Notes under the pieces: model-generated
The model's database searches: none
What the model saw: the letters and a program-made list of their open reading frames with translations, nothing else
What the model was told of the DNA's origin: nothing
DNA from: Vulcanimicrobiota bacterium
GTDB lineage: Bacteria > Vulcanimicrobiota > Vulcanimicrobiia > Vulcanimicrobiales > Vulcanimicrobiaceae
Length of the DNA: 64,000 nucleotides
NCBI GenBank assembly: GCA_019232905.1
Contig: JAFANA010000086.1
Span: 1-64,000 of the forward strand
Direction: 5' to 3'
Translations under genes and position numbers: made by a program
Shown: positions 34,755-40,803 of the stretch, one piece after another
Layout: each line of letters opens with the position of its first letter
Position numbering within the stretch: position 1 is the stretch's first letter

Positions 34755-35438
34755 CTATCGGCTTACCCCTGGGTTCTTGTCGGCAAAGGCGCCGTTCGGA
34801 TTTGGTTTCACCCAAACGGTGAGGTCCCACACCGCCGGAAAATGAAAGATCGTGACGACGTCGTTTATGCTGTCGACTTTATGCATCGCGACGAGCGTAT
34901 GCGCTGATGGGTATAAGGCGTTTCCTCCACCAGCGGCAAACGCGGCGTCAGACATCCACTGCTCGTACTTCATAGTGCCGTGCCCATCGCGTGCAACCCA
35001 ATGAATGTGCCCGTCGAGTTGCGCCCAGCGTCCCGGATTTACGCCCCATAGATGCGGTGGAGTCTTGCAGCTGGTCCGGAGAATCGAATAATCCGCACCG
35101 AGCAAGTGTCCGTTCTTGTCGTACCATAGCTGGGATGGAGCGCGTTCGCTCGTCGTTTGCCAACGCCGGTTCGCGTAACTGATTGCGCCGGTGTCGTCTT
35201 CATCCGAATAGCGAACGTATCCGGCTTTTTCCGCGTCGCTTGCCGTCGCATAGCGAGACGTTAAGTCGGCTTGTATCGCCGACACGAAACGCGTCTCGTT
35301 CGCGTTCTCAGGACCGGTGTACGTCGCGTCGGCTGCCGCGCGAGCGGCGAAGATCGTGCTCACCGCGAGACCAATCGCCAGACCTGCTCGCGTCAGTGCT
35401 TGATACGCGTGAACATTTGAATGAAGGTTGTTTCCCAC
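34755..35438 (-). CDS. Secreted hypothetical protein
   Basis: Signal-like LTRAGLAIGLAVSTIFAARAAADA; 227-aa open frame. Confidence 0.6.
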   Translation of the reverse strand: MGNNLHSNVHAYQALTRAGLAIGLAVSTIFAARAAADATYTGPENANETRFVSAIQADLTSRYATASDAEKAGYVRYSDEDDTGAISYANRRWQTTSERAPSQLWYDKNGHLLGADYSILRTSCKTPPHLWGVNPGRWAQLDGHIHWVARDGHGTMKYEQWMSDAAFAAGGGNALYPSAHTLVAMHKVDSINDVVTIFHFPAVWDLTVWVKPNPNGAFADKNPGVSR

Positions 35439-35643
35439 GTTCGTCCTCCATCTGCTGAAATGGCGGATTCCGTCCGAAATGAGGACGGCGTAATATCTGA
35501 ATACACGACGCGCTCGAGCACCGGCCGTCCATCGACCGTGTCGCGGCCGTGGAACTCTCCGCGCCCGTTTTTGAACTCGCCGACGAGTGGCGCGTCAAGC
35601 GTCCCGTGCTCGGCGCTTCCCCAGTAGACGTTCCAACGGCCGC
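35393..35643 (-). pseudogene. 5'-truncated remnant of a secreted DUF1579-like protein gene
   Basis: Minus frame: stop TAA then GGRWNVYWGSAEHGTLDAPLVGEFKNGRGEFHGRDTVDGRPVLERVVYSDITPSSFRTESAISADGGRTWETTFIQMFTRIKH*; no start codon before the in-frame stop. Confidence 0.55.
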
Positions 35644-35655
35644 CTTACACCGCCT

Positions 35656-35715
35656 AGTATAATAGGACTACAAATATAGTCAAGAGTTTGACTAAATTTG
35701 TAGGCGTTCTATAAT
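35656..35715. promoter_or_regulatory. Divergent sigma70-like promoters overlapping a BlaI/MecI-type operator
   Basis: Plus: TTGACT(35688-35693)-N16-TATAAT(35710-35715). Minus: TTGACT(35683-35678)-N16-TATACT(35661-35656). Inverted repeat CTACAAATATAGTCAA-GAGT-TTGACTAAATTTGTAG (35668-35703, 15/16 matched). Confidence 0.75.
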
Positions 35716-35722
35716 GGGCGTC

Positions 35723-36103
35723 ATGGGCCGTAAGCCGAGCGCCGTCCTGACCGATCATGAGTTGCGCATCATGCGTGCTTTGTGGAAGCTCGGCGAGAGT
35801 ACGAACATGGACGTGGTCGGCGCGCTCGACGATCCGCCGCTCGCGCGCAACACCGTAATGACCACGCTCGGCGTGCTCGAGAAGAAGGGCTACGTCAAGC
35901 ATCGCGCCGATGGGCGTACGTTCATTTACTATCCCGTCGTGCACGAAGATGACGTGCAAGAACGCGCACTCGACAATGTGTTGCACCGGTTCTTCGACGG
36001 TTCTCCGGAGTTGCTCGTCTCGAAGTTGCTCGACGCGGAACACATTTCAAAAACGGATCGTAAGCGCATTCAAGCCTTACTGGATCGCGCGAAGGGCAGT
36101 TAA
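35723..36103 (+). CDS. blaI: BlaI/MecI/CopY-family transcriptional repressor
   Basis: LTDHELRIMRALWKLGESTNMDVVGALDDPPLARNTVMTTLGVLEKKGYVKHRADGRTFIYYPVV. ATG 35723 (alternative ATG 35714). Confidence 0.93.
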   Translation: MGRKPSAVLTDHELRIMRALWKLGESTNMDVVGALDDPPLARNTVMTTLGVLEKKGYVKHRADGRTFIYYPVVHEDDVQERALDNVLHRFFDGSPELLVSKLLDAEHISKTDRKRIQALLDRAKGS

Positions 36104-37774
36104 ATGCTCGCGCTCGCGCCCACCGTCGACATCGTTCTGGGACTGACGCTCGCCGTCGGGCTCGCCGGCGTGTTCGTAGTGTCCGCGATCCAGTGCCTCG
36201 GCGGTTTCAAACAAGACGCGGGCGCGCGCTTTCATCTCTGGTTCGCGCTGCTGCTCGTCCTTGCGGTCGCAGCGCCGTCGTTCACCGCAGCGACGATCGC
36301 GGCATTTCGCGCTGAACCGATCGTGGTGTCCGCGGGAACGCTTCCCGCCGTTACCGAGCCGGTACGCATCGATACTACAGCGCGCACATTTGCAGCGCCT
36401 GCGGCTTACGAGCGCGAAGCTAGCGTGTACCGTCCGCCGGATCCCGCGAAGCCTGCGCTTCCTCTTGCCGCCGACGCGCTCGTGCTGGTTTGGATTGCCG
36501 GTGCATTTGGTTTTCTGGTACGCGTTGGAATCGGCGTCATTCGTATTCGCCGGTTGACGCCGGGGTGCCGGCTCGTCGAGATGCGTTCGACTCCGCAGCG
36601 CAACGTGCGGATCCTGGAACACCCCCGTCTTTCGGTCCCCATTGCAATCGGATACCGTCGCCCGGCTGTGCTTATTCCGAGCGCGTTGCTCGAGAGCGCC
36701 CCACCCGACGATGTCGAGAACGTCGTCCTGCACGAACTGGAACATCTGCAGCGTTTCGACGACGTCACATCATTCGTCCAGTCGATCTGCTTGAGTCTGC
36801 TGTGGTTCAATCCGCTGGCGCATTACGTCGTGCGACGCATCGCCGTGGAGCGCGAAATGGCGTGCGATGAAGCCGTCGTGCGCCGCATCGGCAAACGCCA
36901 CGGCTACGCATCCACGCTGTGGAACGTTGCGCTCAGTGTATCCGACTCGCTCGTTCCGAGTTTCAGTTCCGCATTCGCCTCCGGTTCGCAAACCGTGAAC
37001 CGCGTGGCGAATCTGCTCGATACCGCGCACACGCGCGTATCGCGCAGAGTCGTTGCGCTCGCAATCGTTGCCGTCATGGCCGCGTTCGCAGGCGTATCGC
37101 TTGTCGCTGCAGCGGCCATCGGGAGTGTTCGCCCAGTAATTACTGACGCCGCATCGGTTGCTCTCCTCGATGGAACCACGCTGGTCGTGGGCGGCCGGAA
37201 CACGGACGGAACGCCGGTGGACGAAGCCGAGATTTACCGCGCCAACGCGCGTGTTGCGCTGGTGCCGATGGCAATACCACGCTGGTCGACAACGCTCACG
37301 CGCTTGCGCAACGGCGATGTTCTGGTCACCGGCGGGATGACGCCGGACGGAACCACGGCCGACGTCGAACTCTTTAATGCGCGCACGCGAACGTTCGAGC
37401 TGGTCAACCGCTTGCACGTTGCGCGCGTCGCGCACACGGCGACCCTTCTCGCCGACGGCACGGTGCTTGTCGCGGCCGGAGAACGCGCGCCGGGCAAACT
37501 CGAGTCATCAACCGAGATCTACGATCCGCTCAGCCGTACATTCCGTCTGACCGCCGACGGTTACGGCCGAATTTCACAGAGCGCAATTCGGATCGACGGC
37601 AGTGACGTTTTGATGATGGGCGGCGATCCCGGCCGCGGGCGCAAGAATTGTGCGATCATCTATTCAGCGACGCGGCACATCTATCACAACGCCGGCACGC
37701 TGGTTCGCGCGACCGCAGACCATTTAACGTTCCTGTTGCCGAACGGAACATACGTGACGCACACCATCGACTAA
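36104..37774 (+). CDS. M56-family (BlaR1-like) membrane metallopeptidase with C-terminal kelch-repeat domain
   Basis: NVVLHELEHLQRFDDV (HExxH), WFNPLAHYVVRRIAVEREMACDEAVV; then about four kelch-like repeats, e.g. RVAHTATLLADGTVLVAAGERAPGKLESSTEIYDPLSRTFRL. Confidence 0.88.
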   Translation: MLALAPTVDIVLGLTLAVGLAGVFVVSAIQCLGGFKQDAGARFHLWFALLLVLAVAAPSFTAATIAAFRAEPIVVSAGTLPAVTEPVRIDTTARTFAAPAAYEREASVYRPPDPAKPALPLAADALVLVWIAGAFGFLVRVGIGVIRIRRLTPGCRLVEMRSTPQRNVRILEHPRLSVPIAIGYRRPAVLIPSALLESAPPDDVENVVLHELEHLQRFDDVTSFVQSICLSLLWFNPLAHYVVRRIAVEREMACDEAVVRRIGKRHGYASTLWNVALSVSDSLVPSFSSAFASGSQTVNRVANLLDTAHTRVSRRVVALAIVAVMAAFAGVSLVAAAAIGSVRPVITDAASVALLDGTTLVVGGRNTDGTPVDEAEIYRANARVALVPMAIPRWSTTLTRLRNGDVLVTGGMTPDGTTADVELFNARTRTFELVNRLHVARVAHTATLLADGTVLVAAGERAPGKLESSTEIYDPLSRTFRLTADGYGRISQSAIRIDGSDVLMMGGDPGRGRKNCAIIYSATRHIYHNAGTLVRATADHLTFLLPNGTYVTHTID

Positions 37775-39900: not shown

Positions 39901-40803
39901 ATGCGGCGTTTTTTTGCAGTACTGATCATGTTTGTTGCATCACAATCCGGAATTTCGCGCGCGGACGACAATCTGCAAGCACAGCTGCGAACGCTGACCG
40001 CGCACTATGCAGGGAACGTGGCACTCTACGCGGTCGACATGAAAACGGGCCGCGAGGTCGGTCTCAATTCCGACGTGCCGGTGCCGACGGCGTCGACCAT
40101 CAAGCTTGCGATTCTCTTTGAAGCGCTCAAAGCGATCGAAGCCGGCGATGCCCGCTGGGACGACGCCCTGATGCTTACACCGGAAAATCAAGTCGAAGGG
40201 TCGGGGGTGCTCAATCTCTTCGATACGCCGCTCGTAGTGACGTTCAAGGACGCACTCACGATGATGATCGTTCAGAGCGACAATACCGCGACGAACATGG
40301 CAATAGACCACCTCGGGCTCGCGCGCATCGACGAGCGCATAAAGTGGCTCGGCTTGAATGACACGTGGCTGTACAAGAAGGTCTTCAAACCGCCGACGGG
40401 CGACGTGCCCGCCGATCAGCCGAAGTTCGGGCTCGGCAAGACCACGGGCCGCGAAATGGGCGAACTCATGCGACGTTTTGCGAACTGCAATTTGAACGAG
40501 CCCGGCGATACGGCACCGCCGACGCCGGAGCAGCAGAAGCTGTGTGACACGGCGCTCGCCATGCTCAAGAACCAATCCGACCGCGGCGGCATTCCGCGGT
40601 ATTTGGGCAGCCTTACCATCGCGAACAAGACCGGCGCGCTCGATGCTTCACGCAACGACGTTGCAATCGTCTACGCCGCCCACGGGCCGATCATCATCTC
40701 GGCGTTCACCTACAACAATAAAGATCAAAGCTGGACCGTCGATAACAGCCCTCAAATCTTGATCGCCAAGATGGCGAAGACGATCGTCGACGCCTGGAAA
40801 TAG
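39901..40803 (+). CDS. Class A beta-lactamase-like serine hydrolase
   Basis: Signal peptide; PTASTIKLAILFEAL (SxxK), MIVQSDNTATNMAI (SDN), TIANKTGALD (KTG). Confidence 0.83.
   Translation: MRRFFAVLIMFVASQSGISRADDNLQAQLRTLTAHYAGNVALYAVDMKTGREVGLNSDVPVPTASTIKLAILFEALKAIEAGDARWDDALMLTPENQVEGSGVLNLFDTPLVVTFKDALTMMIVQSDNTATNMAIDHLGLARIDERIKWLGLNDTWLYKKVFKPPTGDVPADQPKFGLGKTTGREMGELMRRFANCNLNEPGDTAPPTPEQQKLCDTALAMLKNQSDRGGIPRYLGSLTIANKTGALDASRNDVAIVYAAHGPIIISAFTYNNKDQSWTVDNSPQILIAKMAKTIVDAWK

What the first reader, a model, noticed from the sequence alone, without database searches (positions are those of the whole stretch)
36104..37774. BlaR1-like M56 protease with a kelch-repeat sensor domain
Immediately downstream of a BlaI repressor gene is an M56 metallopeptidase (HELEH) in which the usual C-terminal penicillin-binding sensor is replaced, after a TM segment, by roughly four kelch-like repeats. 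This suggests a BlaI/BlaR-type proteolytic signalling pair that senses something other than a beta-lactam. Domain assignment is by motif; ligand and topology are inference.
Basis: partly seen in the sequence, partly recalled or inferred. Interest (0 to 1): 0.78.

Follow-up and report, generated by a model that had tools for sequence, protein, structure and literature searches.

The report
BlaR1-like protease with kelch sensor
A soil bacterium carries a two-gene switch built like the staphylococcal penicillin sensor, but its outside-facing antibiotic-binding part has been replaced by a kelch propeller fragment, so it probably senses something other than penicillin and what it senses is unknown.

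Summary
ORF 36104-37774(+) encodes 556 aa: an M56 (BlaR1) metalloprotease followed, after the fourth TM segment, by four kelch repeats exactly 48 aa apart. A BlaI-family repressor gene abuts it. Every BlaR1 catalytic residue checked is present, and predicted topology matches BlaR1 (protease inside, kelch outside). The kelch model is confident and looks like an open arc of a six-bladed propeller. There is no penicillin-binding domain. Two other Eremiobacterota genomes carry the same BlaI/M56-kelch pair, and their M56 domains form one clade, so the fusion is real and probably arose once. New here: the blaI promoter holds two BlaI-type operators (ACTA-N6-TAGT) over back-to-back promoters. The leftward promoter is 28/32 identical to the promoter of the palsa_1484 operon. 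In the 83%-complete genome, full matches lie only at this promoter. Context: BlaI-M56 pairs with swapped C-terminal domains are the rule in this phylum (28 of 51 pentapeptide repeats; also TonB, HEAT, toastrack), none with a transpeptidase. So this is a new variant of a known kind. Signal and target genes remain unknown; candidate targets are the pair itself and a leftward secreted-protein gene.

The parts
35656..35683 (-). leftward sigma-70-like promoter TTGACT-16-TATACT
   Evidence: 10 of 12 consensus; 28/32 identical to the promoter of the palsa_1484 operon, next best match of the 32-mer elsewhere in the window 18/32
35666..35681 (.). BlaI-type operator 1, GACTACAAATATAGTC (perfect dyad GACTA-N6-TAGTC)
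   Evidence: only full match of the dyad in the 3.29 Mb genome
35688..35715 (+). rightward promoter TTGACT-16-TATAAT for blaI; TATAAT ends 7 nt before ATG 35723, so a leaderless transcript is likely
   Evidence: 11 of 12 consensus
35690..35705 (.). BlaI-type operator 2, GACTAAATTTGTAGGC, overlapping the -35 box and spacer; inverted copy of operator 1
35723..36103 (+). blaI-family repressor (126 aa from ATG 35723; the ORF is open from ATG 35714)
   Evidence: PF03965 109.7 bits; MecI/BlaI structures 1sd6, 1okr, 1sd4
36104..37774 (+). M56-kelch protein, 556 aa
36161..37012 (+). M56 domain, residues 20-303, including TM1-TM3 and the cytoplasmic gluzincin domain
   Evidence: BlaR1 8exs/8exp match E about 1e-8
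36731..36745 (+). HELEH zinc motif, residues 210-214
   Evidence: H210, E211 and H214 invariant in 29 of 29 aligned M56
36854..36868 (+). ExxxD motif, E251 to D255 (BlaR1 E242/D246)
   Evidence: invariant in 29 of 29
36935..36991 (+). counterpart of the BlaR1 autocleavage loop, residues 278-296, with A290-F291 at the S283-F284 site
   Evidence: BlaR1 loop from PMC9834060
37049..37123 (+). TM4, residues 316-340
37142..37285 (+). kelch repeat 1, residues 347-394
37286..37429 (+). kelch repeat 2, residues 395-442
37430..37573 (+). kelch repeat 3, residues 443-490
37574..37717 (+). kelch repeat 4, residues 491-538; Cys516 is kept in all three orthologues
37718..37771 (+). two strands of a fifth blade, residues 539-556
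35393..35644 (-). truncated gene remnant (83 aa, no start codon) next to the leftward promoter
   Evidence: relatives in 17 of 60 genomes (own included), most in longer frames
34755..35438 (-). secreted protein of unknown family, 227 aa; candidate second target of the divergent promoter (inference)
   Evidence: family in 53 of 60 relatives; within 3 kb of an M56 gene 5 times against about 0.24 expected

Best explanation
A BlaI/BlaR1-type proteolytic switch in which the extracytoplasmic penicillin-binding sensor is replaced by an open arc of about 4.5 kelch blades. Shown from sequence and models: M56 protease with all BlaR1 catalytic residues checked, BlaR1-like predicted topology, kelch domain on the far side of TM4, BlaI partner in the same operon, and two BlaI-type operators over back-to-back promoters. 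Inferred: BlaI holds its own operon and the leftward transcript off; when the kelch arc meets its partner outside the inner membrane (a protein or glycan, not a beta-lactam), the change passes through TM4 and the extracellular loop to the inside-facing zinc site; the protease then cuts BlaI and the divergent promoters open. The transcripts raise BlaI and M56-kelch themselves and possibly an envelope or secreted protein.
For: M56 and kelch both far above Pfam cut-offs. H210, E211, H214, D219, E251, D255, Y268 and R300 match BlaR1 H201, E202, H205, D210, E242, D246, Y261 and R294; all invariant in 29 aligned M56 proteins except Y268 (28 of 29), and A290-F291 sits at the autocleavage site. Four hydrophobic segments at 10-28, 47-65, 121-139 and 316-334 with more positive charge on the inner side. 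Kelch domain model pLDDT 87.9, pTM 0.84; best folds are six-bladed kelch domains, including 192 columns at 1.8 A rmsd on KLHL3. BlaI and kelch co-occur in three genomes and their M56 domains form one clade, support 99/95. Operators: two full matches in the genome, both here; the same dyad lies at the head of the orthologous operons in G012 and palsa_1484; promoter 28/32 identical.
Against: No binding, cleavage or expression data exist. The S. aureus BlaI cut site is not conserved (Lys-Leu here), although Leu is usual in this group. The operator consensus used for G012 and palsa_1484 was widened after seeing them, and in its wide form it also hits other BlaI-M56 loci. Neighbouring genes differ between the three loci, so no conserved target is known. 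The kelch domain is not a complete ring, so a classic propeller binding face may be absent. The full-length model is only moderate (pTM 0.64, loop 73-118 unmodelled).
Confidence: 0.68

Rival explanations
1. The kelch arc is a structural dock (anchor to another envelope protein or cap of the M56 dimer) and the real signal is membrane or envelope state read by the M56 TM region; kelch binds no inducing ligand.
For: In this phylum M56 carries many unrelated repeat domains (pentapeptide, HEAT, kelch) in the same place, and a few have only a short C-terminal part. The Mycobacterium tuberculosis homologue lacks an equivalent sensor domain (PMC9834060).
Against: The kelch domain is kept at 34% identity across genera, as expected for a domain with a specific role; but this does not separate dock from sensor.
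Confidence: 0.2
2. The system still answers beta-lactams or cell-wall damage: a class A-like beta-lactamase gene (39901-40803) lies 2.1 kb downstream and the pair senses muropeptides or drug through kelch or a partner.
For: Beta-lactamase2 domain 174 bits.
Against: No BlaI operator at that gene; the full operator matches are only at blaI. The gene is separated by an S9 peptidase on the other strand, and the class A equivalog cut-off is missed, 73 against 200 bits. No transpeptidase domain. No comparable gene was noted next to the orthologous pairs, though those flanks were only partly searched.
Confidence: 0.07
3. The M56-kelch protein is a housekeeping membrane protease whose substrate is not BlaI; blaI is only a repressor of its gene.
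For: The canonical BlaI cut site is not conserved.
Against: M56 proteins throughout the phylum sit directly behind a BlaI gene, and the four BlaI genes found in this genome are paired with its four M56 genes.
Confidence: 0.05

Closest known systems
BlaR1/BlaI and MecR1/MecI of Staphylococcus (structures 8exs, 8exp; PMC9834060)
   Same: M56 gluzincin domain with the catalytic residues checked, four-TM N-out/C-out layout (predicted here), autocleavage loop with Phe at P1', BlaI partner in the operon, dyad operators over divergent promoters (the ACTA-N6-TAGT form of the staphylococcal operator is from memory).
   Different: No penicillin-binding sensor; a kelch arc instead. BlaI cut site Lys-Leu and not Asn-Phe. 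No beta-lactamase or PBP2a under the operator.
Mycobacterium tuberculosis BlaI/BlaR (Rv1846c and its partner)
   Same: BlaI with an M56 partner that lacks the penicillin sensor (PMC9834060).
   Different: The mycobacterial protein has no equivalent sensor domain; this one has a kelch domain there.
Eremiobacterota BlaI-M56 pairs with pentapeptide, TonB, HEAT, DUF4097 or DUF2807 C-termini
   Same: Same operon, same M56 domain, sensor position taken by another domain.
   Different: Kelch instead of those domains; separate clade of M56 and its own operator sequence.
Free-standing secreted bacterial kelch proteins (galactose-oxidase central-domain type), e.g. the 759-aa protein of G047
   Same: Same repeat type; possible source of the domain.
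   Different: Those appear to be soluble proteins with more repeats; here four repeats on a membrane protease.

Membership tests
Peptidase family M56 (PF05569) | profile match over the cut-off, HExxH plus ExxxD gluzincin motifs | tested here: met
   109.3 bits against 31; H210/E211/H214, E251/D255
BlaR1 (NCBIfam NF000326 equivalog) | full-length match over 400 bits | tested here: not met
   77 bits, residues 38-333 only
BlaR1 | C-terminal penicillin-binding (class D beta-lactamase-like) sensor | tested here: not met
   no transpeptidase match; kelch instead
BlaR1 | four TM helices, protease inside, C-terminal domain outside | tested here: met
   hydropathy and charge bias, helices in the model; prediction only
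BlaI/MecI/CopY repressors (PF03965) | winged-helix plus dimerisation domain over the cut-off | tested here: met
   109.7 bits against 22.6
BlaI of S. aureus type | Asn-Phe cleavage site | tested here: not met
   Lys-Leu; Leu in 82 of 94 sampled relatives
BlaI/BlaR1 pair | protease cleaves the partner repressor | not testable with these tools
   needs a biochemical assay
Kelch repeats (PF13418/PF01344) | repeats over the cut-off | tested here: met
   63.9 against 21.6 bits and 34.1 against 20.1 bits
Kelch beta-propeller | closed ring of about five to seven blades | tested here: inconclusive

The most novel reading that the evidence does not exclude
Two open kelch arcs, one from each subunit of the BlaR1-type domain-swapped dimer, close on each other (or on a blade donated by a ligand protein) to make an intermolecular propeller, and ring closure outside the cell is the signal that turns on the inside protease.
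Probability: 0.1. Interest if true: 0.75.

Novelty: new variant of a known kind. Interest (0 to 1): 0.47.

Why it matters
BlaR1 is known as the beta-lactam sensor behind staphylococcal resistance. This locus, with the many other swapped C-terminal domains around it, supports the view that BlaI/M56 is a general transmembrane proteolysis module with exchangeable outside domains, of which the penicillin sensor is one special case. A clade with a defined operator and a small, confidently modelled domain gives a concrete handle for finding a non-beta-lactam signal of the family.

Tried and rejected
Preset BlaI half-site patterns with a tight spacer found nothing useful across 92 upstream regions; the operator was found by reading the promoter and by a repeat scan. 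Beta-lactamase as target: rejected, no operator there. Operator-defined regulon beyond blaI: near-matches elsewhere in the genome are no more than the control count, so none is claimed. Assembly chimera: rejected by two orthologues. M56-kelch elsewhere: none in 396 genomes of the phylum of an acidobacterial relative at E 1e-40 and no plasmid record covering 80% of the protein; a diverged fusion could be missed. A joint alignment of M56 and free kelch segments mis-registered the kelch part and was not used for modelling. Rfam: nothing at the locus. PADLOC: only weak Csa3 and CARF matches to BlaI, taken as shared winged-helix signal. No held paper contains both BlaR1 and kelch.

Full report
What is there. 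The window lies in a 3.29 Mb draft genome (83% complete) of the phylum Eremiobacterota/Vulcanimicrobiota, judged from its relative palsa_1484. At 36104-37774(+) a 556-aa ORF has an M56 domain (residues 20-303, E=2.7e-31) and kelch repeats (Kelch_4 E=1.3e-17). A profile built from the repeats finds them at residues 347, 395, 443 and 491, exactly 48 aa apart, with half a fifth at the end. The stop codon of a Penicillinase_R (BlaI) gene is directly followed by the M56 ATG.

Protease. Sequence search of solved structures puts BlaR1 first for the M56 part and galactose oxidase and other kelch structures for the C-terminus. Against BlaR1 (PMC9834060) the catalytic residues correspond one to one: H201/E202/H205 to H210/E211/H214, D210 to D219, E242/D246 to E251/D255, Y261 to Y268, I265 to L272, R294 to R300; all but Y268 (28 of 29) are invariant in 29 aligned M56 proteins. 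The scissile S283-F284 of the autocleavage loop corresponds to A290-F291. So an active, self-inhibited BlaR1-like protease is the simplest reading.

Topology. Hydrophobic segments at 10-28, 47-65, 121-139 and 316-334 with more K/R on the sides expected to face the cytoplasm and helices at 5-34, 39-69, 119-149 and 314-340 in the model give the N-out/C-out layout of BlaR1, with HELEH inside and kelch outside. This is prediction.

Kelch domain. Modelled alone it reaches pLDDT 87.9 and pTM 0.84. Best structural matches are six-bladed kelch domains, natural and designed (TM about 0.8 by query length, about 0.62 by target length); 192 columns fit KLHL3 at 1.8 A. That fits an arc with the curvature of a six-bladed ring and not a small closed ring; I had no coordinates to measure closure. 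No match to the BlaR1 sensor was seen.

Relatives. In 149 genomes of the phylum, 86 have a match at E 1e-10, but only three carry M56 plus kelch: this one, G012 and palsa_1484. All three have blaI directly upstream. On a tree of the M56 domain alone the three form one group (99/95), which fits one fusion event. The kelch parts of the window and G012 align over all four repeats at 34%. In palsa_1484 an 'nn' breaks the kelch region; the last repeat resumes after it, so its repeat number is unresolved.

Family context. Pfam scans of 51 M56 proteins, nearly all from this phylum, show pentapeptide repeats in 28, TonB_C in 3, HEAT in 2, DUF4097 in 2, DUF2807 in 1 and kelch in 2 (palsa_1484 was cut before most of its repeats); none has a transpeptidase domain. 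Almost every one follows a BlaI gene. The genome has four BlaI and four M56 matches, as four pairs. Sensor swapping is thus common here, which lowers the surprise of this locus.

Control region. The blaI upstream region holds two 16-bp dyads, 35666-35681 (GACTACAAATATAGTC) and 35690-35705 (GACTAAATTTGTAGGC), arranged as an inverted repeat, over two promoter-like sites facing away from each other. The -10 box TATAAT ends 7 nt before ATG 35723, so a leaderless message is likely. In the whole genome, full matches of GNCTACAAATWTAGTC occur only at these two sites, and weaker matches do not exceed the control. In palsa_1484 a dyad GACTATATTTATAGTA sits in TTGACT-16-TATACT just before a 434-aa outer-membrane-porin-like gene (my reading; no Pfam match) followed by blaI and M56-kelch; that 32-bp stretch is 28/32 identical to the window's leftward promoter, while the best other match in the window is 18/32. 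In G012 AACTATGAATATAGGC lies before a 260-aa secreted-protein gene followed by blaI and M56-kelch. The common consensus was written after seeing these sites and also hits other BlaI-M56 loci, so the 28/32 comparison and the strict genome scan are the safer evidence. The dyad has the ACTA-N6-TAGT form that I recall for the staphylococcal bla/mec operators (from memory). Small autoregulated BlaI/BlaR1 operons are documented in Clostridium thermocellum (PMC8457756).

Target. The first genes under the operator differ in the three loci. Leftward in the window lies an 83-aa remnant of a gene whose start is missing, then a 227-aa secreted protein of a family found in 53 of 60 relatives. That family lies within 3 kb of an M56 gene five times against about 0.24 expected, but three of the five are one genus, one is the window itself, and orientations differ. 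I treat it as a candidate only.

Mechanism and confidence. Shown: domain composition, catalytic residues, operon, operators as sequence features, one clade. Predicted: topology and fold. Inferred: BlaI binding, ligand sensing by kelch, cleavage of BlaI. The cut site is the weakest link: Lys-Leu where S. aureus has Asn-Phe, but Leu is the norm here (82 of 94), so a shift of specificity across the group is plausible.

Novelty. No held paper has BlaR1 and kelch together. It works like BlaR1/BlaI; it is not a BlaR1, because the sensor is absent and the equivalog cut-off is missed. I file it as a new variant of the M56/BlaI kind.

Noticed in passing
L036-L084 (Acidobacteria BlaI-M56 loci), e.g. L041:5077-5092: In 42 of 49 loci a DegP/HtrA-like protease gene (GNSGGP motif) is present, usually right after M56, and 29 have ACTAA-N4-TTAGT at its 5' end, mostly inside the reading frame as T-N-S-L-V with a rare TTA codon (3.8% of Leu) but out of frame at or before the open frame's start in L036, L037, L040 and L084. 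This looks like a BlaI operator at the 5' end of htrA and a blaI-M56-htrA regulon.
   Followed up: partly
A2 loci (L001-L034, L090-L115): 28 of 51 M56 proteins carry C-terminal pentapeptide repeats where BlaR1 has its sensor.
   Followed up: partly
L001, L002, L004 (own-genome blaI promoters): Each BlaI paralogue has its own pair of dyads, about 45 bp apart, around a TTGACA promoter: CTCTTAAAGAATTAG, CTACTAAGTCTTTAG, TATTACGAATCTAAT.
   Followed up: partly
window 35393-35644 (-): 83-aa C-terminal remnant of a gene family, cut next to the operator region, no start codon.
   Followed up: partly
window 39901-40803 (+): Class A beta-lactamase-like gene (Beta-lactamase2, 174 bits) that misses the NCBI class A cut-off; no BlaI operator at it.
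   Followed up: partly
L086:5370-7649 (-): 759-aa protein of G047 made of about 15 kelch repeats of the same type.
   Followed up: no
L085:11585-13126 (+): In G012 a 513-aa secreted protein, metallo-beta-lactamase-like by eye (Pfam finds nothing), starts divergently across the operator.
   Followed up: no
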